From an uncultured Gammaproteobacteria bacterium (lineage in GTDB: Bacteria; Pseudomonadota; Gammaproteobacteria; Eutrophobiales; Eutrophobiaceae): 64,000 nucleotides of DNA. The stretch lies in the NCBI GenBank assembly GCA_958295485.1, contig OY282354.1, positions 2,292,068-2,356,067 on the forward strand, read 5' to 3'. The position numbers and the translations under genes were made by a program. A model generated the notes under the pieces. It had not been told where the DNA came from. It made no database searches and worked only from the letters and a program-made list of their open reading frames with translations. The number at the start of each line of letters is the position of its first letter. Position 1 is the stretch's first letter. Below, one piece after another: positions 36,080 through 50,438 of the stretch.

Positions 36080-37786
36080 ATGGCGAAAAATGATTACAAG
36101 AATTGGAGCAAAGACGATCTCGTAAAAGAGGTTGACCGTCTGCGAAAGCGCAAGAAATACGGACTTGTCTGGGAAGACAAGCCGGAGGATGTTGTTGAGC
36201 AGTGCAAAACCGAGCTTCCGATTTTGGATGAAGTGGAAGACAAAGAAATTAAGACGGACCCAGACAAGCCCGCGAATTTATTGATTGAGGGCGACAATTA
36301 CCACGCGCTTTCAGTTTTGAATTATACGCACAAGGGCAAAGTGGATGTGATTTACATTGACCCGCCGTATAACACAGGAAACAAGAGCTGGAAGTATAAC
36401 AATCATTATGTGGACAAAGAGGATAGTTTTAGACATAGCAAATGGCTGTCTTTTATGGCCAAGCGGTTAGAGCTCTCAAAGCACTTATTAAAAGACAGTG
36501 GAATGATAATTGTAACTGTCGATGACTATGAGATCGGTTCGTTACGACTATTGATGGATGAAATATTTGGAGAGCAAAATAGGCTCGGTCTTGTAACTAT
36601 AATGCACAACCCACGGGGGAGAAGCGATGATTTGTATTTCGCTAGCTCTCATGAGTACGCTTTGGCATATGGGCGCAGACAGGGAAAGACCACTACTTAC
36701 AAATTACGTCTCACGGAGGAGCAAGAAGAAAATTTTCCTCTTGAAGATGAAGTGTCTCGCTATCGCTTACTACCATTAAAAAGAACTGGTTCAAATTCAA
36801 CTCCGAATGAACGCCCAAACTTGTTTTACTCAATTTTCTACAAACCTGAAACAAACGAAATTAGTATTGGTGAGAAAAAAGATTTTGTAGAAATCATCCC
36901 ATTAGATAGCAACGGGGAAAAACGTGTTTGGCGATGGGGTAAGGAAACACTCAAGGAAAGGAAAGATACGGAGATAGTCGTTAAAAAAGGCCGTAATTAT
37001 GAATATGCTGTTTATGCAAAAGATAGGGTTAAAGGAGGTAGAAAACCAAAAACAGTTTGGGTTGATCCAAAATATGACGCTTCCTCTCACGGTACTCTGT
37101 TGCTCCAGAAAATTTTAGGTAAACGGAAAACTTTTGATTACCCCAAATCTCTGTATGCGGTAAAAGATATACTGGAAATAGGAGTTCGAGGAAAAAAGGA
37201 AGCGCTGATTTTAGATTTTTTTGCGGGATCAGGAACAACTGGACATGCTGTTATGGAGCTGAATAAAGAAGATGGTGGCAATCGAAAATTTATTCTTTCA
37301 ACGAACAATGAGGATAACAACGGAGAAGGGCTAAAAATTGCTACTGACATCTGCCACCCACGAATCAAGAGAGTCATAGAGGGATATAAAACCGGTAAAG
37401 AAAAGGTTGAGGGTCTGGGCGGCAACCTAAAATACTTCCACACTTCTTTTGTTCCCGCCGACCCGACGGACAAAAACAAAACAGAGCTTACCGAGAAAGC
37501 AACGGAAATGCTTTGTGTCCGCGAGGACACATTTGAGCCGATGAAAGATGAGGAGAAGTTTAAGATTTTCAAAGGTAAAGACCACTACACAGGCATTATC
37601 TTTGACCAGCTTGCGATTGATGATTTTAAGAAAGCCATCGCCAAAATTGACTCGCCGTTTAGCGTGTATGTGTTTTCGCTCGGCGATGACACGTTTGATG
37701 ACGAGTTCGCGGATGTAAAAGATAAGGTTACACTCTCGCCGATACCGGAGGCGATTTTGCGAGTGTATCGTAGAATTTTTAAATAA
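36080..37786 (+). CDS. Type III restriction-modification methyltransferase (Mod)
   Basis: Adenine-N6 methyltransferase and DNA-recognition subunit of a type III system. 568 residues in beta-class order: catalytic motif IV DPPYNTGN at residues 94-101, then a long target-recognition region (about 130-360), and the AdoMet motif I DFFAGSGTTGHAV at about 377-389. The central recognition region is more AT-rich than the two ends, compatible with domain exchange. Its TAA shares a base with the ATG of the nuclease gene. Confidence 0.92.
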   Translation: MAKNDYKNWSKDDLVKEVDRLRKRKKYGLVWEDKPEDVVEQCKTELPILDEVEDKEIKTDPDKPANLLIEGDNYHALSVLNYTHKGKVDVIYIDPPYNTGNKSWKYNNHYVDKEDSFRHSKWLSFMAKRLELSKHLLKDSGMIIVTVDDYEIGSLRLLMDEIFGEQNRLGLVTIMHNPRGRSDDLYFASSHEYALAYGRRQGKTTTYKLRLTEEQEENFPLEDEVSRYRLLPLKRTGSNSTPNERPNLFYSIFYKPETNEISIGEKKDFVEIIPLDSNGEKRVWRWGKETLKERKDTEIVVKKGRNYEYAVYAKDRVKGGRKPKTVWVDPKYDASSHGTLLLQKILGKRKTFDYPKSLYAVKDILEIGVRGKKEALILDFFAGSGTTGHAVMELNKEDGGNRKFILSTNNEDNNGEGLKIATDICHPRIKRVIEGYKTGKEKVEGLGGNLKYFHTSFVPADPTDKNKTELTEKATEMLCVREDTFEPMKDEEKFKIFKGKDHYTGIIFDQLAIDDFKKAIAKIDSPFSVYVFSLGDDTFDDEFADVKDKVTLSPIPEAILRVYRRIFK

Positions 37787-40011
37787 TGACTGTGCAGCTA
37801 AAAGACTACCAACAACGCGCCATACGAGAGCTACTGGAGGATTCCAAAAAGCTTTTGGGCCAGACCGGCAACAAAAGGCTCATTTTCAAGTCGTCCACCG
37901 GATCGGGCAAGACCATGATGATGGCCGAGTTTTTGAAGCGGCTTGCCGAAGACTCGGAAGCGCGCATGCCGTTTGCTTTCATTTGGACTGCTCCGCGCAA
38001 GCTTCACGAACAGAGCAAAGAAAAACTGGTGGGTTATTTTGAAAATTCCCGCGCTTTGGAATGTTCCGAGTTTGAAGATTTAGACGACAGGCAGATTCAG
38101 GAAAATGAGATCTTGTTCTTTAACTGGGAAAGTATCAACAAAAAGGACAATATCTACATTCGCGAGAACGAGAAGGAAAACAATCTTGGCGCGGTGATTG
38201 AGCGGACAAAAGACGCTTGGCGCGAAGTAGCGCTCGTCATTGACGAGAGCCACCACCACGCGACCAGCGAAATCTCACAGAACCTCATCAACGATATTGC
38301 GCCAAAACTGACAATTGAGGTTTCGGCAACGCCGGTGATTCAAAATCCCGACGAGATCGTTTCCGTGCCACTGGAAGACGTAAAGGTTGAGGGCATGATT
38401 AAGAAGTCCGTCATGCTCAACCCCAATTTTGAAAATGTGCTCTCTGGCGACAATATCAAAAGCGCGCTCGCCGATGGCGCTGACGCTTTGGTGCTTGAAA
38501 CAGCAATCAAGAAGCGTAAGGAATTGGCAAAAACCTACGAGGAAGAAGGCGCAAACATCAATCCACTTCTTTTGATTCAACTGCCCGACAGGAAAACGAA
38601 GATGGAAGACCAGATGAAAGCCGACATCATCCGCATTTTGAAAGACAAGCACAATATCACGACTGAAAACGGCAAGCTGGCGATTTACCTTTCGGGCGAG
38701 AAAGAAAACTTGGAAAACATCGCCAAGAACACGCACGAAACCGAGGTTTTGATTTTCAAACAAGCAATCGCGCTTGGCTGGGATTGTCCACGAGCGCAGG
38801 TGCTTGTGCTATTCCGCGATTGGAAAAGTTTGACATTCTCTATTCAGACCGTCGGGCGCATTATGCGTATGCCGGAGCCGGACAAAGGACATTACGAAAA
38901 CGAGAGTTTGAATCATGGTTATGTGTACACGAACTTGAGCGATATTGCGATACGCGAGGATATTGCCAGGGACTATGTAACGATTTACACCAGCCGCAGG
39001 ATTGACGAGTACGAGCCGATTGAGCTTGTGTCCGTGCACCGCAAACGACAACGAGAAAAGACACGCCTTGCGCCGCTCTTTATTCATTTGTTTTTGGAAG
39101 AAGCGGAAAAATACGATTTGGAAAAGAAAATCAAAACCACAGGGCAAAAGGTGCAGATCGGCTTTATCTCTGACTATAAAGCCGGAAGCGTGGACGAGCT
39201 TGGCGGCGCGGACATTGTGGCGGACAGAAGCGTTGATACGGACAATGAATATGACTTGCAGAAATCGTATGACTTCTTTGTGCGCCAGCACCTTACGCCG
39301 TTTTATCCCGAAGACCGCTCAATCGGCCAAATGAAAGAAGCTATTTACTACTTTTTCCGTATGAGGCTGGGCATTCACTACATGGAGCGGTTCCGAGACA
39401 TTATCAATATCGTATTAAGCGAGGATAATGTTCAGCATTTTGTAAATGTGCTAGACGCCGCAAAAGAAAGCTACATTGCCGAGGTGCAAAAGCGAGAAAA
39501 TGAACTTGAAGAAGATAAGGCGTGGGATGTACCTGAAGCGGTCAATTTTGGCGGCGATTATTCGGCGCTGGGCGCGAAGCTGTCCGTCATGCAGCCATTT
39601 TACTACGATCACCGCTGGAAGCCGGAGAAAGCGTTTATTGATTTTCTCGGAAAATCCAAAAATGTTGAGTGGTGGTTTAAGAACGGCGACCGAGACGCGA
39701 CTTATTTTGCCGTGCCCTATGAAGAAAACGAGGAGTGGAAGCCGTTTTACGTGGACTTTATCGTGAAGCTTAAGGATGGGCGCATTGGGCTGTTAGACAC
39801 CAAATCAGGATGGACGATAAAAGACGCACGAGAAAAGAGCGATGGCTTGCAGGCATATCTCAAAGAGCACGGCAAAAAGAAAAATCTGTTTGGCGGTATT
39901 GTCGCCAACACCAAGCTCCAGAACTCCAACGGCCGCTGGATGATTTATACTGACGCGAGCGCCAACCTTGTCGTTGATGATTTTAGTCATTGGAATATTT
40001 TGGAGATATGA
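37786..40011 (+). CDS. Type III restriction enzyme (Res), helicase-nuclease
   Basis: Partner of Mod; ATP-driven translocase that cleaves when two sites meet head to head. 741 residues. Walker A SSTGSGKT (36-43), DEAD-like VIDESHHH near 152, motif III SATPV near 180, helicase motif VI QTVGRIMRMPEPD near 358-370. A PD-(D/E)XK nuclease core lies near the C terminus (YVDFIVKLKDGRIGLLDTKS). All motifs are intact, so the system looks functional. Confidence 0.9.
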   Translation: MTVQLKDYQQRAIRELLEDSKKLLGQTGNKRLIFKSSTGSGKTMMMAEFLKRLAEDSEARMPFAFIWTAPRKLHEQSKEKLVGYFENSRALECSEFEDLDDRQIQENEILFFNWESINKKDNIYIRENEKENNLGAVIERTKDAWREVALVIDESHHHATSEISQNLINDIAPKLTIEVSATPVIQNPDEIVSVPLEDVKVEGMIKKSVMLNPNFENVLSGDNIKSALADGADALVLETAIKKRKELAKTYEEEGANINPLLLIQLPDRKTKMEDQMKADIIRILKDKHNITTENGKLAIYLSGEKENLENIAKNTHETEVLIFKQAIALGWDCPRAQVLVLFRDWKSLTFSIQTVGRIMRMPEPDKGHYENESLNHGYVYTNLSDIAIREDIARDYVTIYTSRRIDEYEPIELVSVHRKRQREKTRLAPLFIHLFLEEAEKYDLEKKIKTTGQKVQIGFISDYKAGSVDELGGADIVADRSVDTDNEYDLQKSYDFFVRQHLTPFYPEDRSIGQMKEAIYYFFRMRLGIHYMERFRDIINIVLSEDNVQHFVNVLDAAKESYIAEVQKRENELEEDKAWDVPEAVNFGGDYSALGAKLSVMQPFYYDHRWKPEKAFIDFLGKSKNVEWWFKNGDRDATYFAVPYEENEEWKPFYVDFIVKLKDGRIGLLDTKSGWTIKDAREKSDGLQAYLKEHGKKKNLFGGIVANTKLQNSNGRWMIYTDASANLVVDDFSHWNILEI

Positions 40012-40104: not shown

Positions 40105-40146
40105 TATAATATTGGTGTTTACTTTGTTAGCTAACTATGTTAACAT
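40105..40146 (+). promoter_or_regulatory. Promoter and twin-palindrome operator of the CBASS operon
   Basis: A perfect -10 box TATAAT (40105-40110) is followed by two perfect 10-bp palindromes, GTTAGCTAAC (40126-40135) and ATGTTAACAT (40137-40146). Their centres are 11 bp apart, one turn of B-DNA, and they share the core GTTA-TAAC. They sit between the expected transcription start and the ATG at 40153 of a gene whose product begins with an HTH domain. This is the layout of an autorepressed operon. No good -35 box is visible. Confidence 0.65.
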
Positions 40147-40152
40147 TCAAAT

Positions 40153-41421
40153 ATGAAGACAAAAACTCTTGGTGAAAAAATTAAGCAAGAACGGGGAAAA
40201 AAGAAGCTATCCCTTCGAAAATTTGCTGAAACGCTAGGCATTTCAGCAGCTTATCAAGTTGATATAGAAAAGGACCGCAGACAGCCAAACGAGGAGCTCC
40301 TACAAAAAGCTGCTGATTTGCTCGATATACCCATATCCGAATTTGACGAATTTATGCCATCCCTTCCTAAACCAGTGAAAGAATGGATCGGTAAGAATCC
40401 TTTAATCGGAAAGGTAATAGAGTTACTGAACAGGGCTCCCTCCCCCGAAGATACTATTAAACAATTCGAGAGGTCATTATCGAAATCTACAGTCCGAAAA
40501 TATCCAATTGCGATTTATGAATCTGAGCTCCAGTCCATTGGCCTAGACAGCGCGTCATGGGAGACAGAAACAGGGGGTGATCTTTTCGGTATTTGGGGAG
40601 ATATTCCAGTCGTTTATTTTGCAAGTAAAGCCGGTCCGAAAGCACAACGTGATCATGCCCATTTTCGGTTGGATATTGAATATTTGATCCATCTCAGCAT
40701 TGTTCTAGAAAAAGACTGGGGTCTGAGGTATTTCGGTGATTGGCATTCTCATCACAGTCTTGGACTCAACAGTCCTAGTAATGGCGATAAGAAACGAATC
40801 GTCAGTGTGGCAGACAAGAACCACTTCGATGAAATGGCTGAATTCATCATTACCTTCAACACCTCCGGGATTGATAAGAAGAGAAAAATTAAAATCAACC
40901 CATATCTATATCTGGATCTGCCATCTAGCAGGTTGACTGATGCAATTATTATTGTAGTAAAAGGAATCAGTCCAGTGCGTTCCGCCCTGTTGGCCGCATC
41001 ATCGTTGCCAGAGCAGCAATTAGATTCGTATGGCTCATTTCCAATTGAAAATCTTTCTATTCCTAGGGAACCCATTGGCCGAGTTTCGGGTGCTGACGGA
41101 AACTCAGTGGCCCAATTCAGTGAGAGACTAGTTAACAAAATAGCAACTGAGCTTGCCACAATTTCACATGGCAACATCGAAATCTACCATAAATCATTTG
41201 GTCATGTCCTTGTCGTACCAGTAAACGACAAAGAATATGTTGCTTTTGCTCATGATAAAACATGGCCTCATTACATGCTGCAAGCAGACTGGATTAATAG
41301 GAGGAATGGCAGCATTACAGAGATTGACATTAATACAGACGGAATTTCGTTATTAAATCTGTCCGAGATAAAAAAGATGTTTGTCGATATCAAAAATATT
41401 AGAGCTGAAATTGAGAAATGA
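40153..41421 (+). CDS. XRE-type HTH fused to JAMM/JAB metalloprotease (Cap3-like)
   Basis: 422 residues. Residues 5-65 form an XRE/Cro-type HTH (LGEKIKQERGKKKLSLRKFA, then ETLGISAAYQVDIEKDRRQP). Residues about 115-235 are a JAB/MPN metalloprotease: Glu139 in ETGGDLFG, then H198-x-H200 and D212 in WHSHHSLGLNSPSNGD, the JAMM zinc motif with one extra residue. Residues 245-422 are a further domain I cannot name. In type II CBASS the JAB protein Cap3 removes conjugates made by Cap2. The attached HTH suggests it also represses its own operon through the palindromes just upstream. Its stop overlaps the next ATG (ATGA). Confidence 0.82.
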   Translation: MKTKTLGEKIKQERGKKKLSLRKFAETLGISAAYQVDIEKDRRQPNEELLQKAADLLDIPISEFDEFMPSLPKPVKEWIGKNPLIGKVIELLNRAPSPEDTIKQFERSLSKSTVRKYPIAIYESELQSIGLDSASWETETGGDLFGIWGDIPVVYFASKAGPKAQRDHAHFRLDIEYLIHLSIVLEKDWGLRYFGDWHSHHSLGLNSPSNGDKKRIVSVADKNHFDEMAEFIITFNTSGIDKKRKIKINPYLYLDLPSSRLTDAIIIVVKGISPVRSALLAASSLPEQQLDSYGSFPIENLSIPREPIGRVSGADGNSVAQFSERLVNKIATELATISHGNIEIYHKSFGHVLVVPVNDKEYVAFAHDKTWPHYMLQADWINRRNGSITEIDINTDGISLLNLSEIKKMFVDIKNIRAEIEK

Positions 41422-41864
41422 CATTTCTTGAACGATTAGATCTTGAAAATAAGATTCTTCAGAATAGTGGTATGTCACAATTTCAAATTTATCGTGGCTA
41501 TGGAAATACATATACCTTAACTGGCATATACAAATCAAACAGTGGGAACCGTTACACTTTGTATAGCCCAATACCAAGTAATTATCCCGTAGGACGGCCC
41601 GAGCTGTATATAAAGAATCCCAATCCACTTTACGGATATGCCAATCAGAGAACAATTAATAGCTACGGTTTGAGCCATTCTATGCATACATTGCCTAATG
41701 GTCCTTTTGGTGAGGTTCAAATATGCCATTGGCGCAGGGAGCGTTGGCACAGTGCCATAACCTTTAACAAAGTAATGTTGAAGGCCATGTTATGGCTAGA
41801 GGCATATGAACAGCACTTGTCGACAGAAAAGACGATCGACTCATATGTGAGAACTATGAATTGA
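41418..41864 (+). CDS. Stand-alone E2-like ubiquitin-conjugation protein
   Basis: 148 residues with the pattern of prokaryotic E2-like (UBC-fold) proteins: a curved sheet region (YTLTGIYKSNSGNRYTLYSP, then NYPVGRPELYIKNP), a conserved His90, the probable catalytic Cys103 in FGEVQICHW, Trp110, and the C-terminal helix AMLWLEAYEQHL. It should accept a modifier from the E1 gene two positions downstream. In known type II CBASS the E2 and E1 parts are usually fused in Cap2; here they are separate. Overlaps the HTH-JAMM gene by 4 bp. Confidence 0.75.
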   Translation: MTFLERLDLENKILQNSGMSQFQIYRGYGNTYTLTGIYKSNSGNRYTLYSPIPSNYPVGRPELYIKNPNPLYGYANQRTINSYGLSHSMHTLPNGPFGEVQICHWRRERWHSAITFNKVMLKAMLWLEAYEQHLSTEKTIDSYVRTMN

Positions 41865-41883: not shown

Positions 41884-42066
41884 ATGTCAACACAAAAAGA
41901 GATGATCAAAGAAGCAATGCAAGCAATTGCACAACGTAGACCAGGACAAACCAAACTAGTTTATGACAAGGCTACTAAGACGATTGTTGCCGTCTCAAGC
42001 ACTGGTCAAAAACCAGCTGGCCTGATGATATCTAGCGAAGATGCAGATATGTTCTATTTATCATGA
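41884..42066 (+). CDS. 60-residue protein of unknown function between E2 and E1
   Basis: MSTQKEMIKEAMQAIAQRR is followed by a predicted strand-rich half (TKLVYDKATKTIVAVSS ... GLMISSEDADMFYLS). Its stop overlaps the E1 start (ATGA), so it is translated together with E1 and is unlikely to be chance. It could be the modifier, an adaptor or a substrate. It lacks a C-terminal Gly-Gly, so if it is a ubiquitin-like modifier the C terminus must be used as such or trimmed. I recognise no family. Confidence 0.7.
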   Translation: MSTQKEMIKEAMQAIAQRRPGQTKLVYDKATKTIVAVSSTGQKPAGLMISSEDADMFYLS

Positions 42067-43349
42067 TTACAATAACAACAGAATTTCTTGATTCGAATTG
42101 GAAGGTACTGCGAGAGACTTCTATTTTGCCTGTGCAACTTTCAGAATGGGACGATGGTGATGCCTACACTCAGAGTGACATTGGTGTGTTACCAAGTCGA
42201 AAAGTAGTACACGGCGCCATCGTAATGGGTGATATGTCAGTTTCTGACTTCTCGATAGTGATAAGGCTACGCAGGAGTACAAATGAAGAAAAAGAAATGA
42301 TGTATAACTCTCCAGATGGTCATCAATATCAAGCCGTTGCTGAACAATATATAGATGGAATGAATAAATCTATATCCGTTTGTATTGAAAACGTAGCCAA
42401 CACTTTGTCTAGTCGTAGACGTGGACTAATCGAAACTGATGATTTGAAAGATAGCTCAGTTCTGGTCGTTGGATTAGGTACAGGTGGAATCATTATTACG
42501 TTGGAACTAGCAAAAGCAGGAGTCGGTAAATTCATCTTGATAGACTCAGATCGGTTGGAGACCGGCAATGTTTCTAGGCATAGCGCTGGGATATCTTTAG
42601 TTGGGCGTAAAAAAGTCGCTGCAGCTAAAGATCTCATCTTAGAAACTAACCCATTTGCAGAAGTCGAAATTCACAGTGTAAAAGCAAATGAGGAAACTGA
42701 GGAACTTACCAAAAATGCTGTACTCCGATGCGACTTAATAATCTGTGGAACCGATAACCGACCAAGTAAGCTATTTTTGAACACATTATGTGTGAATGTA
42801 GAAAAGTGTGTAATATTTGCCGGCGCGCGTCGACGTGCGTTTGCTGGTGAAGTTCTTCGCGTTCGTCCTAGTGAATCTGCCTGTTATCACTGTTACGTTT
42901 TGAACAAGCCAGACGAAGAGGCTGATAGAGAAATCTCATCTCAAGAAGACGCCGATTCAATTGCATATTCAGATATGCCGGTTGCAATTGAACCTGGACT
43001 TTCCATTGATATTGCTCCAATTGCCCTCATGGTAGCAAAACTGGCACTGCAAGAATTACTTATCGGAAAAAAATCTACTCTTCAGATGCTCAATGAAGAT
43101 TTTAAGGCAAATTTATACAAATGGGGTAATAGGCCTGAACCAGACACAGAATATGCGTTATGTCCTCCATTAAGCGATAGTATTGATGAGATAACAATCT
43201 TGCGTTGGTATGGTATTTATCTTGATAAAGAAGCTGGCTGTCCAACATGTGGTGATTTTGAAAGTGCGATGCGGGAGGAATATGGCATAGATGGCGGAAT
43301 GGGAATACTACCGTTTAACCCGGACATTTTACAACAGGAAGATAAGTAA
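42063..43349 (+). CDS. E1-like activating enzyme (ThiF/MoeB fold)
   Basis: 428 residues. An N-terminal domain of about 120 residues is followed by the adenylation domain: VVGLGTGGI at 135-143 (ATP loop), IDSDRLETGNVSRHSA at 160-175 (the acidic and N-x-x-R residues of E1 enzymes), and CDLIICGTDNRPSK. Paired CxxC motifs (C274/C277 in ACYHC and C393/C396 in GCPTC) form a structural zinc site as in ThiF and MoeB. It should adenylate the C terminus of a protein and pass it to the E2. It lacks a fused E2 domain. The next gene starts 3 bp later. Confidence 0.85.
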   Translation: MITITTEFLDSNWKVLRETSILPVQLSEWDDGDAYTQSDIGVLPSRKVVHGAIVMGDMSVSDFSIVIRLRRSTNEEKEMMYNSPDGHQYQAVAEQYIDGMNKSISVCIENVANTLSSRRRGLIETDDLKDSSVLVVGLGTGGIIITLELAKAGVGKFILIDSDRLETGNVSRHSAGISLVGRKKVAAAKDLILETNPFAEVEIHSVKANEETEELTKNAVLRCDLIICGTDNRPSKLFLNTLCVNVEKCVIFAGARRRAFAGEVLRVRPSESACYHCYVLNKPDEEADREISSQEDADSIAYSDMPVAIEPGLSIDIAPIALMVAKLALQELLIGKKSTLQMLNEDFKANLYKWGNRPEPDTEYALCPPLSDSIDEITILRWYGIYLDKEAGCPTCGDFESAMREEYGIDGGMGILPFNPDILQQEDK

Positions 43350-43352
43350 AGT

Positions 43353-44240
43353 ATGGAACTCAACTCCTACTTTCGCGGCTTATTGTCGAATATTGAGCCT
43401 AATCAATGTGATATCGATAGGGCAAAACAAGCCCATGAAGATTTGCGTCAGTTATTTTTACTAGATGATGAAATATCGAAGGCTGACCCAGACAGTTATT
43501 TATCTGGCTCCTACGCTAGAGACACTGCATTAAACCATATTAAGGATGTTGATATTATCTTATTAATTGCTCTAGATTATAAATCAACTGAGCCCGAAGT
43601 AGTCTTGGCTTGGGTCCAGGCTGCATTACAACAATATTATAGTCAAAAGGTAATCCGACAGGGTCGTTCAGTTAAAGTTACAACAGATAACGGATTCGTT
43701 TTAGATGTTGTTCCCGCTGTCCCGCTTTACCATCGAGATGGTCCTGTTTGGATTCCTGATCGTGATGTTCGACAATGGGTCCTTACTCATCCGAAAGGTC
43801 AAATAGAATTTGGTGTTAATAAAAATAAAGCGACCCAAGGATATTATAAACACCTTGTTAAAATTATGAAGCACTGGCGCGATAGGCTCCCTACCGAAAT
43901 CGAACGCGCTAACTCTTATATCATTGAAAGTCTTGTTGCTAAGAGTCTACATTGGACACCATTATCATATGGTAGAGGAGTTGTAGATATATTTCATCAT
44001 ATCTACTCTAATTATGCTGCGTACCTAAATTTACACACGGTACCTATAATTGCTGATCCAGGCTACCCATCTGTTAATGTAGCAAAGAGGTGGAAATTTG
44101 AAGAATTCAAGGCATTCATTCAAGCAACCCGTTCTTCATTATCAATAGCTAGTTCTGCACTAGCTGATGAAGAAAAAGAAAAGAGTATTATGCTTTGGAA
44201 AAAGTTGTTTGGTGAAAAATTTAGTCCAAGAGAAGAGTAA
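43353..44240 (+). CDS. CD-NTase (cGAS/DncV-like nucleotidyltransferase)
   Basis: 295 residues. The active-site block is LSGSYARDTALNHIKDVDI: GS at 52-53 with D65 and D67, and the third acid D118 in GFVLDVVPAV. The polymerase-beta core is followed by the helical PAP/OAS1-like domain (HLVKIMKHWRDRLPTEIERA). It should make a cyclic oligonucleotide after phage infection and thus fire the SAVED effector encoded next (stop and ATG are adjacent). The C terminus is FGEKFSPREE, not the Gly/Ala ending typical of CD-NTases conjugated by Cap2. Confidence 0.9.
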   Translation: MELNSYFRGLLSNIEPNQCDIDRAKQAHEDLRQLFLLDDEISKADPDSYLSGSYARDTALNHIKDVDIILLIALDYKSTEPEVVLAWVQAALQQYYSQKVIRQGRSVKVTTDNGFVLDVVPAVPLYHRDGPVWIPDRDVRQWVLTHPKGQIEFGVNKNKATQGYYKHLVKIMKHWRDRLPTEIERANSYIIESLVAKSLHWTPLSYGRGVVDIFHHIYSNYAAYLNLHTVPIIADPGYPSVNVAKRWKFEEFKAFIQATRSSLSIASSALADEEKEKSIMLWKKLFGEKFSPREE

Positions 44241-45407
44241 ATGTCGGCACCAAAATACTTCTTAAGTTATAGCAGGAAAGATATCGAAGAAATTAGGGGT
44301 ATCGGTCAAACATTGATGCTTCATGGCATAGATATATGGCAGGATATCTCAAACCTAGGTACCGGTATCGCAGAAAGTAAGATCCGTAAGGCAATAAAGG
44401 ATGAGGTAAATGGTCTTTTGCTGCTAGCTACTCAACATAGTGTCTGCTCAAGCTTTATTAAATCGGTAGAACTACCCGAGGCTGATAAAAGATTCAAACG
44501 GGACGACGATTTTCAAATCGTTCCCGTGTTTGGGTTACCTATTGAAGATACCAACAAAGCATTGAGTGGATGTCTAACCGTTCCTATATCAAATTTCAAC
44601 GGCGCAAAAATCGAATGTATAGGCCAAGAATATAATGTAATTACAGCGGCACAGCGGGCTGCTGAGATTATTTTAGAAGATTCTATATTCAACGCATCAA
44701 ATCCCCTATGCATTGGAATATCATCGAAGCAAATCATTTCTAGCGATGTGAGTTTGCATCTAAATTTTATGAGCTTTTTTGAAGAAGGGCTACCTGACAC
44801 TAATATTTGGGACAATCGATTTACGGTAGCACTGACTAAAGTGAAATCTATTTTGGTAAAAAGAAATAGATTATCTATAAGGCTATACGCTTTCTGTCAC
44901 CTTTCATTAGGTATTCTATTCGGATACGTATTTAGGAAAACAGCAGGAACCAGGCTGGAAATTGAACAGTTTAGCAAAAATAAACGTTTAATCTGGATGA
45001 CTGACGCAAATCCTAAAGATAACCCACTTAATATGGTTGAAATTCCAGACACTCTGGGGTCAAGAAATTTATGCATTATTATCAATCTCATGTCTGCCGA
45101 CAATAATTCAGTAGCAAGATATGCGCAAGAAAACGCTTTAACATTTAGAGGAAAATTGGAATGTATCCCACCATCTTATCCTTACTACATTTCTGGGGAG
45201 CAAGCAGTCACAATTGCTGCTGAACTGGCGGATAAGATCAAAGAATTACATGCTCAGTATGACACAGATACTGTCCATTTATTTGCTGCAATTCCATTAG
45301 GGATCGCAGTACTGATTGGCTACAATCTGAATGCTTGTGGGACAATACAATGTTATGAATTTGATAATGCAAAACGCGTTTACACACCTTCATGTAAATT
45401 ACATTAA
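44241..45407 (+). CDS. TIR-SAVED effector (Cap12-like)
   Basis: 388 residues. Residues 1-125 are a TIR domain (YFLSYSRKDIEEIRGIGQTL; HGIDIWQDISNLGTGIAESK). Glu45 in GIAESKI aligns by position with the catalytic Glu of NADase TIR domains. Residues about 150-388 have the SAVED sensor pattern (GISSKQIISSDVSLHLNFMS; TAGTRLEIEQF; IINLMS; HLFAAIPLGIAVLIGYNLN). In known systems, cyclic tri-nucleotide binding to SAVED makes TIR subunits stack into filaments that destroy NAD+ and abort infection. Last gene of the operon. Confidence 0.9.
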   Translation: MSAPKYFLSYSRKDIEEIRGIGQTLMLHGIDIWQDISNLGTGIAESKIRKAIKDEVNGLLLLATQHSVCSSFIKSVELPEADKRFKRDDDFQIVPVFGLPIEDTNKALSGCLTVPISNFNGAKIECIGQEYNVITAAQRAAEIILEDSIFNASNPLCIGISSKQIISSDVSLHLNFMSFFEEGLPDTNIWDNRFTVALTKVKSILVKRNRLSIRLYAFCHLSLGILFGYVFRKTAGTRLEIEQFSKNKRLIWMTDANPKDNPLNMVEIPDTLGSRNLCIIINLMSADNNSVARYAQENALTFRGKLECIPPSYPYYISGEQAVTIAAELADKIKELHAQYDTDTVHLFAAIPLGIAVLIGYNLNACGTIQCYEFDNAKRVYTPSCKLH

Positions 45408-45852: not shown

Positions 45853-46821
45853 TCATTGTGGTTGAAATTGATCCGCATATTCCCTCGGCGTTAACTGGCC
45901 CAGAGAACTGTGCGGACGATGGTTATTATAGTCGATCCGCCAGGCTTCGATCTTCTTGCTTGCATCCGCCAGCGATTCAAACTCGTGACTGTTCAAACAT
46001 TCATCCCGAAAACGCCCGTTGAAACTCTCAATATACGCATTTTCAACGGGTTTTCCCGGTCGAATAAAGTCCAGCCGCACATCGTTCTCATGCGCCCAGG
46101 CATCCAGCCGGCGACTGGTGAACTGCGAACCGTTGTCACAGGTAATGGTCAACGGCAAACTCAGCTGGTTGCGCACCCGCGCCAACGCATCTATCACCTG
46201 GCCGGACGTCATCGACTGCGCCACCTTAATTAATGGACTTTGCCGACTAAAGTTATCCACCACAGTCAAGGCCTGAAACGCCCGACCATCCAGCAACCGG
46301 TCCGTCACAAAATCCATGCTCCAACATTGCCCCGGAGCGCTCGGCGCCGGCGCTGGCCCCCGGATCGCCGCCGCTCGTTGCCGCCGCCGTTTGATCCGTA
46401 CCCACAACTCCGCCTCGCAATACAGGCGGTAAATGCGCTTGTGGTTCACCGCCCAGCCTTCGCGCTGCAGCAACACATGCAGACGCCGATAGCCAAACCG
46501 CGGCCGGGCCAGCGCCAATTCCTTTAGACGCAAGGCCAACCCCCGGTCATCCAGACGACAAGCACGGTACCGCTGGGTTGACCGAGGGCACTGCAATAGC
46601 CGACATCCATGACGTTCGCTGAGCTGAAAAGCCGCCATTAAAAACGCTACCAACACACGCCGGTCTGCCGGCTTTAAAGTTTTTTTTGGATCACCTCCTG
46701 CAACATGTGCTTGTCCAGGGTCAGATCCGCTACCAGCTGCTTCAGGCGCTTGTTCTCCGCATCCAACTCGCGCAGACGACGCAACTCCGAGACACCCAGG
46801 CCCCCGTACTTCTTGCGCCAA
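45853..46821 (-). CDS. IS3-family transposase OrfB (element A)
   Basis: Catalytic rve domain with DDE residues in [21 protein letters not shown] and [18 protein letters not shown]; the C terminus [17 protein letters not shown] is typical. The open frame extends 5' through the orfA region; the true product is an OrfAB fusion made by -1 frameshifting on AAAAAAAAC at the end of orfA (near 46680), as known for IS3 elements. Complete. Confidence 0.92.
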
Positions 46822-46940
46822 GTGTAAAACGTGGCATCACTGATCCCATACTTGCGGCACACATTCGCTACTGAAGTGCCGCTCTCCGCCAGCTTCAGGG
46901 CATACACGATTTGCGGTTCGGTAAAACGGGTTCGTTTCAT
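46674..46940 (-). CDS. IS3-family transposase OrfA (element A)
   Basis: 88 residues: HTH ([40 protein letters not shown]) followed by a leucine-zipper coiled coil ([19 protein letters not shown]). GAGAGG precedes the ATG. It binds the inverted repeats. Eight A residues before the stop are the probable frameshift site. Confidence 0.92.
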
Positions 46941-47038
46941 GGTTCTCTCCTCTCTGTTAAGGAGCTACCATAGGGCAAAATCGCTAAGTTTGAAATGGCT
47001 CAGTTTTATGGTGCAAGGTCAACAGAGGAGGAATTCCG

Positions 47039-47305
47039 ATGAAACAAAAACGCTATTCAGAAGAGCAGATCATTCAAATCTTGAAAGAGGCGGAGGCCGG
47101 GCTACCGGTCGCCGATGTGTGCCGCAAACATGGGGTCTCGGACGCCAGTTTTTACACTTGGCGCCGGAAGTACGGCGGGCTGAGCGTGAGTGAGGTAAAA
47201 CGGCTGAAACGGCTGGAAGAGGAGAACCGTCAACTGAAGCGCCTGCTGGCCGAGACGCTGCTGGAGAAAACGGCACTGGAGGACATAGTCCAAAATAAGC
47301 TGTAA
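47039..47305 (+). CDS. IS3-family transposase OrfA (element B)
   Basis: 88 residues similar in plan to the element A OrfA but clearly different in sequence ([58 protein letters not shown]). The ribosome-binding site AGAGGAGG now lies next to the element A insertion. Confidence 0.9.
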
Positions 47306-48071
47306 GCCTGCAGAGCGACGGCAGTGGCTGGATCGCCTCATGGCGCGTCATGGATTAAGCCAACGCACGGTCTGCAGGCTGTTGAAACTGTCTCGCAGCA
47401 CGGCCCGGTATCGCTCGGTGCGGCCCCGGGATGACCTCATTCGCCAGCGCCTGCGGGAGTTGGCGTTGCGCTATCGACGTTACGGGTATCAACGGTTGCA
47501 CGTATTGCTGCGCCGGGAGGGGTTTAGGTTGAATCACAAGAAGACGTACCGGTTATACCGGGAAGAGCAACTCCAGGTCAGGCAAAGACAGCGGCGGCGG
47601 CGGGCGGCGACAAGCCGCTTGCCGTTACCGGCGCCGTCACAGCGTAACCGGCGCTGGTCCCTGGATTTTGTCAGCGACCAGTTGCTGGGCGGGCGGCGCT
47701 TTCGTTGTTTAACCGTGATGGACGATTGTACGCGGGAATGCCGGGGGATACTGGTGGACTTCTCGATCGGCGGCGCCCGGGTCACCCGGTACCTGGACAT
47801 GTTAATGACGTCCCAGGGGAAGCCCGCCAACACCCTGTCGGATAACGGCGCCGAGTTCACGTCAAAGGCGATGTTTGACTGGGGCCAGACGCACGGGGTT
47901 CAACTGCATTTTATTGAACCGGGCAAGCCGGCACAGAATGGGTTTAATGAAAGCTTCAATGGCCGGCTACGGGATGAATGTTTGAATGAGTTGCGTATTC
48001 CGGTGAAGATGAACACCGATTCCGGAGGAATGTGAACACCTGATTTCTCAACACATCCTGTTTACAGGTTT

Positions 48072-48830
48072 TTAACTCAACTGTTCACGTTCTGTCAACG
48101 TTGTCATCTTTTTTCGCATGGATTCTCCCTTCAGCACCAACCGGTGCGCATTGTGTATCAAGCGGTCCAGGAGCGCATCGGCCAGGGTGTTATCGCCGAC
48201 CGTGACATACCATTGGTCTACCGGTAACTGGCTGACCATCACGGTGGAGGCGGTTCCGTAGCGGTCATCCAGGATCTCCATCAGGTCATGTCGCTGGGCC
48301 GTGGTGAGTGCGCTCAGGCCCCAATCATCGATGAGCAGTAACCGGGTTTTGGCGGTCTGGGTCAGGAGTTTGTGATAGCTGCCGTCGGCCTTGGCCTGGG
48401 TAAATGCGAGCAGGAGGCGCGACAGGCGGTAATAGCGGGTTGTGTAGCCGTGCAGGCAGGCATTGTGCCCCAGGGCACAGGCCAGGAAGGTTTTGCCGCT
48501 CCCGCAGGGGCCGGTAATGAGCAGGTTTTGTGCCCGGTGCAACCAGTCTCCCTGGGCCAGGTGGGCAATCTGCTCAGGTTGCAGGTTGCGCGGGTGCTGG
48601 TAATCGATGTCCTGGACGGTGGCGCGGAGTTTGAAGCGGGCCTGCCGGATGAGGCGGTCCCGTTTACGCTGTTCGCGCGCCAGGCATTCCTGCTCGACCA
48701 ATAAGCCGAGCCGTTCGAGGAACGGCAGGGCCTCGTAGGTGCTGCTTTGTTCCTGTTGTTGTGTGAGGGCCTGGGCCATGCCGGACAGGCGCAGGTCATG
48801 CAATCGTGCAAGGGTCGTCGTTGTGGTCAT
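48072..48830 (-). CDS. istB: IS21-family helper ATPase IstB
   Basis: 252 residues. AAA+ P-loop LLITGPCGSGKTFLACALGH, Walker B RLLLIDDWGLSAL, and the IstB DRYG(T/R) segment (LMEILDDRYGTASTVMVSQL). It assists IstA in target selection and strand transfer. It follows istA after 11 bp. Complete. Confidence 0.93.
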   Translation of the reverse strand: MTTTTTLARLHDLRLSGMAQALTQQQEQSSTYEALPFLERLGLLVEQECLAREQRKRDRLIRQARFKLRATVQDIDYQHPRNLQPEQIAHLAQGDWLHRAQNLLITGPCGSGKTFLACALGHNACLHGYTTRYYRLSRLLLAFTQAKADGSYHKLLTQTAKTRLLLIDDWGLSALTTAQRHDLMEILDDRYGTASTVMVSQLPVDQWYVTVGDNTLADALLDRLIHNAHRLVLKGESMRKKMTTLTEREQLS

Positions 48831-48841
48831 GGTTCTCTCCT

Positions 48842-50383
48842 TCAGTGGAAGTGATGCCGGCCCCGGATGTTCTCGTGGTCCTGGGGCAGTTCGGTGGTCG
48901 TATCGGGCGAGTCGGGCAGTTGGTCCCGGTTGTTCTCCAGGATGTGTTTGACCTGTTTAAGCCGGGCCAGTCCGGCCTGGTTGGCGAGGCGACAGGCGCC
49001 ATTGAGGCGGCTGGCGGGGTAGCGTTTGCTGAGGCTCAGCAGGCCCAGGCAGACGCGGTACGCCTGTTCCGGATGGGCGCGGCGCTCGAGTTGCCGGCTC
49101 ACCCAGTTATCCACGTCCGGTCCTATGTCCCTGGCCCAGCGCAGCAGGCGCTCGGGTGACCACTGGTGTTGTGCCCGGTGGGGTGCGGGCATGTGAGCCG
49201 GGTTGGTGGTGAACCCGGGCCGGTCCCGGCGCGGGTGGGTGGCGATGCGTCGTTGCCGGTAGTAGAGTTCGACCAGCGTCTCGCCGGCGTGCAGGTCCAG
49301 CCGCTCGCCCACGTACTGGTGTGGCACGGAGTAATAATGCGTCTGGTATTGGACATGGTAGTCGATGTGGACGGTCACCGGTTTGATGGCGACGTAGCGG
49401 TAGGGTTGCCGGGGTAAGCGTTTTAATGCCGGTTTGTCGAGCGTCTCGAAGGCGGACCGGCGGCTGCCGGGTAATTGCTTGAAGGGACGGTTGTTGAGGT
49501 CGTCCAGCAATCTGGCAATACAACGGTTCACCTCGTGCAGGGAGAAGCAGCGGTGGTGGCGCAGCCGGGCCAGGATCCAGCGTTGTACCACCAGCACGGC
49601 CACTTCGGCCTTGGCTTTATCCCGGGGTTTGTAGGGGCGCGCTGGCAGGACGGCCACCTGGTAGTGCTCGGCCCATTGCTGGTAGCTGGGATTGAGGTCC
49701 GGGTCGTAGCGGCAGGCCGCACTCACCCCGCTGCGCAGGTTATCGGGAACGATGAGGGCAGGACAGCCGCCGAAGAAGGCCAGCGCCCGGCTGTGACTGC
49801 CCAGCCAGTCGGGCAGTGACTGGGTCCAGGTCGCCTCGGCAAAGGTGTAGTTGGAGGCGCCCAGCACCGCGACAAAGAGCTGGGCCTGACGCACCTCGCC
49901 GGTCTCTGCATCCATCACCGGCACGGTGGACCCGCTGTAATCCACGAAGCACTTCTCCCCGGCCTGGTGGGATTGCCGCAGGGTGCGGCGTTGTTGGCCG
50001 CGCCAGTGCCGGTAACGGTCACAGAACTGGGAATAACTGTAACACCGGTTCGGGTAATGCTGGGTATATTCCTCCCACAACAGCCGTTTGGTCACATGCG
50101 GCCGCTTCAACTCCTGATGCACCGCCGGCCAGTCCGGAACCTGATAGCGTGTGCGGCTGCCGGTATCGGCGCCGGGATAAAACAACTGGGCCAACCGGGT
50201 GTCATCCAGGTCGGTGGGGAGCGGCCAGCTCAGTTGCAGGGTCTCGGCCCGGCTCAGCAGCTTCTGGATCCCGCCCACACTCAGCTTGGTGCTGCGGCTG
50301 ATATCGCGGATGGACAGACCGGCAGTGTGCCGGAGTCGGAGTACGTCTCGTAGTTTACGCATTGTTGTCCTCTTGCCTGGCAT
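48842..50383 (-). CDS. istA: IS21-family transposase IstA
   Basis: 513 residues from the ATG at 50383, which has GGAGG eight bases upstream; a TTG 15 bp farther up is in frame. The N-terminal HTH (MRKLRDVLRLRHTAGLSIRD) is followed by the rve core (KCFVDYSGSTVP, LIVPDNLRSGV, KPRDKAKAEVAVLVVQRWIL with the Glu) and a C-terminal Mu-like beta-barrel. Complete. Confidence 0.93.
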   Translation of the reverse strand: MPGKRTTMRKLRDVLRLRHTAGLSIRDISRSTKLSVGGIQKLLSRAETLQLSWPLPTDLDDTRLAQLFYPGADTGSRTRYQVPDWPAVHQELKRPHVTKRLLWEEYTQHYPNRCYSYSQFCDRYRHWRGQQRRTLRQSHQAGEKCFVDYSGSTVPVMDAETGEVRQAQLFVAVLGASNYTFAEATWTQSLPDWLGSHSRALAFFGGCPALIVPDNLRSGVSAACRYDPDLNPSYQQWAEHYQVAVLPARPYKPRDKAKAEVAVLVVQRWILARLRHHRCFSLHEVNRCIARLLDDLNNRPFKQLPGSRRSAFETLDKPALKRLPRQPYRYVAIKPVTVHIDYHVQYQTHYYSVPHQYVGERLDLHAGETLVELYYRQRRIATHPRRDRPGFTTNPAHMPAPHRAQHQWSPERLLRWARDIGPDVDNWVSRQLERRAHPEQAYRVCLGLLSLSKRYPASRLNGACRLANQAGLARLKQVKHILENNRDQLPDSPDTTTELPQDHENIRGRHHFH

Positions 50384-50438
50384 GGTAGGTTCCTCCAAAA
50401 AGGAGAGAGCCTACCAAAGGGTTACAAGTTCAATGCGT

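What the first reader, a model, noticed from the sequence alone, without database searches (positions are those of the whole stretch)
40153..41421. One protein joins an XRE repressor to a JAMM deconjugase
Residues 5-65 are an XRE HTH; residues 115-235 carry a JAMM site (E139, H198, H200, D212). Some CBASS operons are controlled by a separate HTH repressor cleaved by a separate Zn protease (CapH/CapP). Here DNA binding and a metalloprotease are in one chain, so loss of repression might be tied to deconjugation activity or self-cleavage. A third unknown domain fills 245-422.
Basis: partly seen in the sequence, partly recalled or inferred. Interest (0 to 1): 0.78.

Follow-up and report, generated by a model that had tools for sequence, protein, structure and literature searches.

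The report
Self-regulating deconjugase of a CBASS operon
The first gene of a bacterial suicide-type anti-phage operon encodes one protein that probably both switches the operon off, by binding its own promoter, and acts as a ubiquitin-style deconjugating enzyme; relatives that lost the DNA-binding part instead have the binding site of LexA, the general DNA-damage repressor, which suggests the operon is meant to be switched on by DNA damage.

Summary
ORF 40153-41421 encodes an XRE helix-turn-helix (residues 5-65), a helical linker and a JAMM/MPN domain with all five catalytic residues. It heads a six-gene type II-like CBASS operon (E2-like, 60-aa protein, E1, CD-NTase, TIR-SAVED). The fusion recurs in ten related loci with the same gene order as far as the contigs reach. 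All eleven fused loci have a palindrome in the same register inside the 17-bp promoter spacer, and an apparently leaderless start. The window's site, GTTAGCTAAC, occurs once in its 3.74-Mb genome. Nine alphaproteobacterial orthologs lack the HTH and that operator, and carry GTTC-N7-GTTC, their LexA box, at the -35 instead. The HTH is best read as a dedicated CapH-like autorepressor fused to a Cap3-like deconjugase, and the operon as damage-inducible. Self-cleavage is not supported: HTH-less orthologs keep the complete JAMM site. The claimed third domain (245-422) is the end of the MPN fold plus an alpha-beta5-alpha domain (318-421). The CD-NTase lacks the C-terminal Gly/Ala tail that known type II systems conjugate, so the substrate is open. 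New variant of a known kind.

The parts
40118..40146 (+). Operon promoter: -35 TTTACT (40118-40123), 17-bp spacer, -10 TAACAT (40141-40146); start codon 6 bases after the -10, so an apparently leaderless mRNA
   Evidence: Same layout in all 11 HTH-bearing loci, 5-8 bases from -10 to start (10 computed, L006 read by eye)
40126..40135 (.). Operator GTTAGCTAAC, centred at spacer position 7/8
   Evidence: 45 of 55 possible pairs across 11 loci at that centre; shuffles mean 15.5, largest 30 in 20000 runs; single copy in window and genome
40153..41421 (+). HTH-JAMM protein, 422 aa
40165..40347 (+). XRE/CapH-like HTH, residues 5-65
   Evidence: HTH_3 7.4e-9, capH 7.9e-7
40348..40494 (+). Helical linker, residues 66-114; its last helix survives as the N-terminus of HTH-less orthologs
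   Evidence: A1 alignment and model
40495..41025 (+). JAMM/MPN domain, residues 115-291; E139, H198, H200, S209, D212
   Evidence: Invariant in 16 of 16; fold matches
41104..41418 (+). C-terminal alpha-beta5-alpha domain, residues 318-422
   Evidence: Own model pLDDT 87; only weak fold matches
41418..41864 (+). E2-like protein, 148 aa, invariant C103 in QxCHW
   Evidence: A3, 16 sequences; weak E2/RWD matches
41884..42066 (+). 60-aa protein, fused to the N-terminus of E1 in most relatives
42063..43349 (+). E1/ThiF-like adenylating enzyme, 428 aa
   Evidence: ThiF 2.2e-34; PADLOC E1-E2 2e-25
43353..44240 (+). CD-NTase (SMODS), 295 aa, without the long C-terminal tail
   Evidence: SMODS 9e-25; PADLOC cyclase 1e-77; nearest PDB 9sa4
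44241..45407 (+). TIR-SAVED effector, 388 aa
   Evidence: SAVED 9.1e-28; PADLOC SAVED_TIR 8.3e-49

Best explanation
The protein is a two-function regulator of a type II-like CBASS operon. Its CapH-like HTH end binds one operator in the -35/-10 spacer of its own leaderless promoter and represses the whole operon, itself included (inferred from DNA anatomy and comparison). Its JAMM end is an active Zn isopeptidase that reverses the modification made by the operon's E1 and E2-like proteins (inferred from family, invariant active site and operon). The operon is released on DNA damage or phage attack; this rests on the swap of the HTH for a LexA box in alphaproteobacterial orthologs. How the HTH lets go is not known. 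I favour loss of DNA binding through the CapH-like helical linker, by cleavage or by partner binding, without JAMM self-cleavage.
For: The same fused protein heads ten related operons with the same gene order as far as each contig reaches. All 11 promoters hold a palindrome centred at spacer position 7/8, with different sequences in two clades (GTTAGCTAAC against GTATGCATAC-like), so both arms changed together. The 17-bp spacer fits steric repression rather than MerR-type activation (general knowledge). One GTTAGCTAAC in 3.74 Mb. Stand-alone relatives of residues 1-107 lie beside CapP-type peptidases. Nine of nine HTH-less orthologs have GTTC-N7-GTTC overlapping the -35, 17 bases before a -10-like hexamer; background about 0.005 per 120 bp; the same motif lies near lexA in the eight such genomes tested. 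GTTCN7GTTC is the Caulobacter SOS box (PMC9578287). CapH/CapP, CapW and CapK/CapS control immune operons in response to DNA damage (PMC13373217). Catalytic residues are invariant.
Against: No binding, expression or enzyme data. The linker alone does not match CapH-like proteins (1 bit or less), so homology beyond the HTH is not shown separately. The CD-NTase ends in E in the window, K or N in its clade, and mostly Q elsewhere, not Gly/Ala, so what would be deconjugated is unclear. The LexA swap shows that the operon can be under SOS control, not that the HTH form answers the same signal. The nine HTH-less loci form one group on the tree, so the swap is probably one event.
Confidence: 0.7

Rival explanations
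1. The JAMM domain is the release switch: on a signal it cuts its own chain between HTH and JAMM, as LexA cuts itself or CapP cuts CapH.
For: HTH and metalloprotease in one chain; residues 110-113 between them are a low-confidence, perhaps flexible, stretch; the LexA swap makes a LexA-like logic attractive.
Against: HTH-less orthologs keep all JAMM residues; the connection is short; JAMM enzymes are usually specific isopeptidases (general knowledge); I saw no CD-NTase-tail-like motif in the linker (by eye).
Confidence: 0.12
2. A separate ImmA/IrrE (M78, CapP-type) protease elsewhere in the genome cleaves the CapH-like part.
For: Relatives of residues 1-107 pair with CapP; the own genome has four M78 genes elsewhere.
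Against: I saw no CapP gene beside the fused genes (ORF lists); three of the four own M78 genes look like HTH-M78 fusions; a CapP query found none in seven of nine genomes, including the own one. The M78 profile missed a CapP-type protein in G402, so absence is weak evidence.
Confidence: 0.18
3. Feedback by titration: the JAMM/C-terminal part binds the cyclase, E1/E2 or their conjugates, which pulls the HTH off DNA, so the operon senses its own conjugation state.
For: One chain carries both functions and is the first gene of the operon; the C-terminal domain is kept with or without the HTH.
Against: No direct evidence; the LexA swap points to DNA damage rather than conjugation state.
Confidence: 0.25
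4. The HTH is only a leftover or an oligomerization aid with no promoter role.
For: It is absent from the alphaproteobacterial orthologs.
Against: The palindrome register is kept in 11 of 11 promoters and its sequence differs by clade; HTH-less promoters lack it and have a LexA box instead.
Confidence: 0.04

Closest known systems
CapH/CapP (CBASS-associated repressor and M78 protease)
   Same: Related XRE HTH (PADLOC capH); first position in an immune operon; operator at the operon promoter
   Different: Here the HTH is fused to a JAMM domain; no CapP in the operon; JAMM is unrelated to the HExxH peptidase
Cap3 (type II CBASS JAMM isopeptidase)
   Same: JAMM/MPN fold and catalytic residues, PADLOC JAB match, partners E1, E2-like protein and CD-NTase
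   Different: Added HTH, linker and C-terminal domain; one residue more between the second His and the Asp; CD-NTase without Gly/Ala tail
Rhizobial CBASS operons (for example Bradyrhizobium plasmid NZ_CP088281, L031)
   Same: Orthologous JAMM, E2-like, E1 and CD-NTase genes in the same order; the Cap4-type effector of L015 matches PADLOC PDLC00744 at 8e-215
   Different: No HTH; LexA box in the promoter; DUF4297-like nuclease-SAVED effector
XRE-ImmA/IrrE (M78) fusion regulators
   Same: HTH and Zn metallopeptidase in one chain; three such proteins appear in this very genome
   Different: HExxH peptidase of another fold; not part of a conjugation operon

Membership tests
CapH-type repressor | N-terminal XRE HTH of the capH family | tested here: met
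   PADLOC capH 7.9e-7 window, 2.6e-9 L001, 4.8e-8 L005
CapH-type repressor | Dimerization domain after the HTH, the part cleaved in the DdrO relative | tested here: inconclusive
   Profile of 1-112 matches CapH-like L044 over 1-107 with 70 bits, but the linker part alone gives 1 bit or less
CapH-type repressor | Operator in the promoter of the adjacent immune operon | tested here: met
   Conserved palindrome in the -35/-10 spacer, 11 loci; binding itself not tested
CapH-type repressor | Adjacent CapP (M78) protease gene | tested here: not met
   None seen beside the fused genes; M78 genes only elsewhere
Cap3 JAMM isopeptidase | JAMM residues and MPN fold | tested here: met
Cap3 JAMM isopeptidase | E1, E2 and CD-NTase in the same operon | tested here: met
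Cap3 JAMM isopeptidase | Cleaves CD-NTase conjugates | not testable with these tools
   Needs biochemistry
Type II CBASS | CD-NTase, effector, E1/E2 and JAB genes | tested here: met
   the E2 assignment rests on an invariant Cys and weak matches
Type II CBASS | CD-NTase tail ending in Gly or Ala, the conjugated residue (PMC10449767, PMC11153139) | tested here: not met
   Window ends SPREE, L001 EVK, L002 VTQSN; of the other 13 listed, most end in Q, three in A, one in V; about 30-40 tail residues missing against the nearest profiles and 9sa4
Type II CBASS | Fused E1-E2 protein (Cap2) | tested here: not met
   E2-like and E1 are separate genes in window and relatives
Alphaproteobacterial SOS regulon (HTH-less orthologs) | GTTC-N7-GTTC at the promoter | tested here: met
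   9 of 9 loci, overlapping the -35; 8 of 8 genomes tested have the motif near lexA

The most novel reading that the evidence does not exclude
An anti-phage operon in which one polypeptide is repressor, sensor and deconjugase: the repressor leaves its operator when its JAMM or C-terminal part engages conjugates or damage signals, so transcription is wired directly to the state of a ubiquitin-like conjugation system.
Probability: 0.25. Interest if true: 0.85.

Novelty: new variant of a known kind. Interest (0 to 1): 0.62.

Why it matters
It is a further wiring of a CBASS operon to a damage-type regulator: a fused repressor-deconjugase, with orthologs under LexA instead. It makes testable whether type II-like CBASS is switched on by DNA damage and whether transcription and deconjugation are coupled in one chain. 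The CD-NTase without a Gly/Ala tail also asks what these E1/E2/JAMM sets really modify.

Tried and rejected
JAMM as the repressor's protease: rejected as its main role because HTH-less orthologs keep the site. M78 presence or absence as a test of a trans protease: inconclusive, the Pfam profile missed a CapP-type protein in G402. Linker-only homology to CapH: not detectable. Fold of the C-terminal domain: only weak matches (capping protein beta Z 8.4, secretion chaperone SycT 6.9, Ubc9 6.3), no assignment. Wider genome sampling (398 genomes of the own phylum, 297 of the Bradyrhizobium family, 376 and 334 of two other phyla) added only two full-length relatives not fetched before, L020 and L030; L030 may or may not be the genome of L002, which I did not check beyond seeing that the proteins differ. 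Operator pattern in viral contigs: none. Named phages: no full-length relative. The 60-aa protein as a ubiquitin-like modifier: unlikely, it is fused in front of E1 in most relatives. Literature searches found no HTH-JAMM fusion, but the library lacks most subscription papers, including Lau 2022.

Full report
Observation. The ORF at 40153-41421 encodes 422 aa. An XRE HTH lies at residues 5-65 (Pfam HTH_3 7.4e-9; PADLOC capH 7.9e-7). A JAMM site (E139, H198, H200, S209, D212) is invariant in a 16-sequence alignment whose members are 35-51% identical to the window. The AF2 model (pLDDT 84.9) places 115-291 in the MPN+ fold: Rpn11 homolog 6fju Z 16.5, rmsd 2.9, 158 aligned; BRCC36 5cw4 Z 15.4; Cap3 with CD-NTase 9ild Z 13.4, 138 aligned.

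Operon. Downstream, on the same strand and tightly packed, lie an E2-like protein with an invariant Cys103 (weak E2/RWD matches), a 60-aa protein, an E1/ThiF protein, a SMODS CD-NTase and a TIR-SAVED effector. Fifteen loci, by record title from Omnitrophota, Planctomycetota, Acidobacteriaceae/Terriglobia, Cyanobacteria, Steroidobacter and alphaproteobacteria, one viral contig, one genome drawn from the phylum of L001, one from the Bradyrhizobium family and a Bradyrhizobium plasmid hold the same order as far as each contig reaches. In most relatives the 60-aa protein is the N-terminus of E1, and the effector is a DUF4297-like nuclease-SAVED protein.

Operator. Eleven loci carry the HTH (window, L001-L008, L019, L030). 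In all of them the promoter is a TTGACA-like -35, 17 bp, then a TAACAT/CATAAT-like -10, and the start codon follows 5-8 bases later (10 computed; L006, GTG after 6 bases, read by eye), as for a leaderless mRNA. A palindrome is centred at spacer position 7/8: GTTAGCTAAC or one mismatch in the window's clade, GTATGCATAC-like and less perfect in the other. Over five positions each side, 45 of 55 pairs match; other centres give 7-24, and 20000 shuffles average 15.5 with a maximum of 30. I picked the promoter register by eye before scoring, and the sequences are related, so this is not 11 independent events; but the arms changed together between clades. GTTAGCTAAC occurs once in the window and once in the 3.74-Mb genome.

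Swap for LexA. Nine alphaproteobacterial orthologs (L009-L015, L020, L031) lack the HTH; most start at the last helix of the linker. All nine have GTTC-N7-GTTC, whose second half overlaps a TTGTTC -35, exactly 17 bases before a CAAAAT/CAGAAT-like -10. In these loci the background rate is about 0.005 per 120 bp, and the same motif lies near lexA in the eight such genomes tested. GTTCN7GTTC is the SOS box of Caulobacter (PMC9578287). In the concatenated tree the two groups are separated by one branch (99/95). Midpoint rooting puts HTH forms on both sides of the root, so one loss is the simplest reading, but the root is not inferred. L013 appears frameshifted near its N-terminus.

CapH connection. 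A profile of A1 picked up stand-alone HTH proteins in other genomes. Four of the five examined (L044, L045, L047, L025) lie next to an M78-type peptidase; by PADLOC, L044 is capH plus capP in an HNH-SAVED CBASS, L047 is capH plus capP, and the L045 peptidase is capP. ssDNA activates CapP to cleave CapH, and CapH/CapP, CapW and CapK/CapS control immune operons on DNA damage (PMC13373217; PMC10904395). So the HTH of the fusion is CapH-like. Homology of the linker on its own was not detectable.

Mechanism. Shown directly: domains, operon, conserved operator register, LexA motif in HTH-less orthologs, invariant JAMM site. Inferred: autorepression, isopeptidase activity, induction by DNA damage. 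Unknown: how the HTH lets go. Self-cleavage by the JAMM is not favoured, because the JAMM is kept complete where no HTH exists. A trans CapP-type protease is possible but no gene for one was seen in the operon.

A problem for the deconjugase reading. Known type II CD-NTases end in Gly or Ala, which is conjugated (PMC10449767; PMC11153139). The window's CD-NTase ends in SPREE, its clade in EVK and VTQSN, the others mostly in FGQ. The best PDB relative, 9sa4, aligns up to residue 303 of 340 at window residue 291 of 295. Either the JAMM trims the end, or another protein is conjugated. E1 has no invariant Cys between its CxxC at 274-277 and the CxxC at 393-396, where I would expect the catalytic one.

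Verdict. A new variant of a known kind: a CapH-like repressor fused to a Cap3-like JAMM protein, with orthologs that use LexA instead. Interest 0.62.

Noticed in passing
window 43353-44240: The CD-NTase lacks the 30-40 residue C-terminal tail and the terminal Gly/Ala of known type II enzymes (ends SPREE); relatives end in FGQ, LGQ, FGA, FGV, EVK or VTQSN.
   Followed up: partly
window 41884-42066: A 60-aa protein of unknown role, separate in the window clade but fused to the N-terminus of E1 in the other relatives; no family match.
   Followed up: partly
window 42063-43349: E1 keeps the adenylation motifs and two CxxC pairs but has no conserved Cys between them, where a catalytic one is expected.
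   Followed up: partly
L013:9365-11677: In one Afipia MAG the 60-aa part, E1 and the CD-NTase are a single 770-aa ORF, which suggests that E1 and cyclase form a complex.
   Followed up: no
L019:1-7877: The start of the same operon lies on an IMG/VR contig after terminase-like and recombinase-like genes (by eye), so a prophage or mobile element may carry it.
   Followed up: partly
L002:4662-5165: Here the gene after the CD-NTase is a 167-aa protein with a hydrophobic N-terminus instead of TIR-SAVED.
   Followed up: no
L044 (G402, the genome that also holds L008): One genome carries both an HTH-JAMM CBASS and a separate CapH/CapP HNH-SAVED CBASS.
   Followed up: partly
window 36080-40011: DNA methylase and ResIII-type helicase genes (type III restriction-modification-like) lie immediately upstream, and transposase-like genes follow downstream (45853-50398), as in a defence island.
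   Followed up: partly
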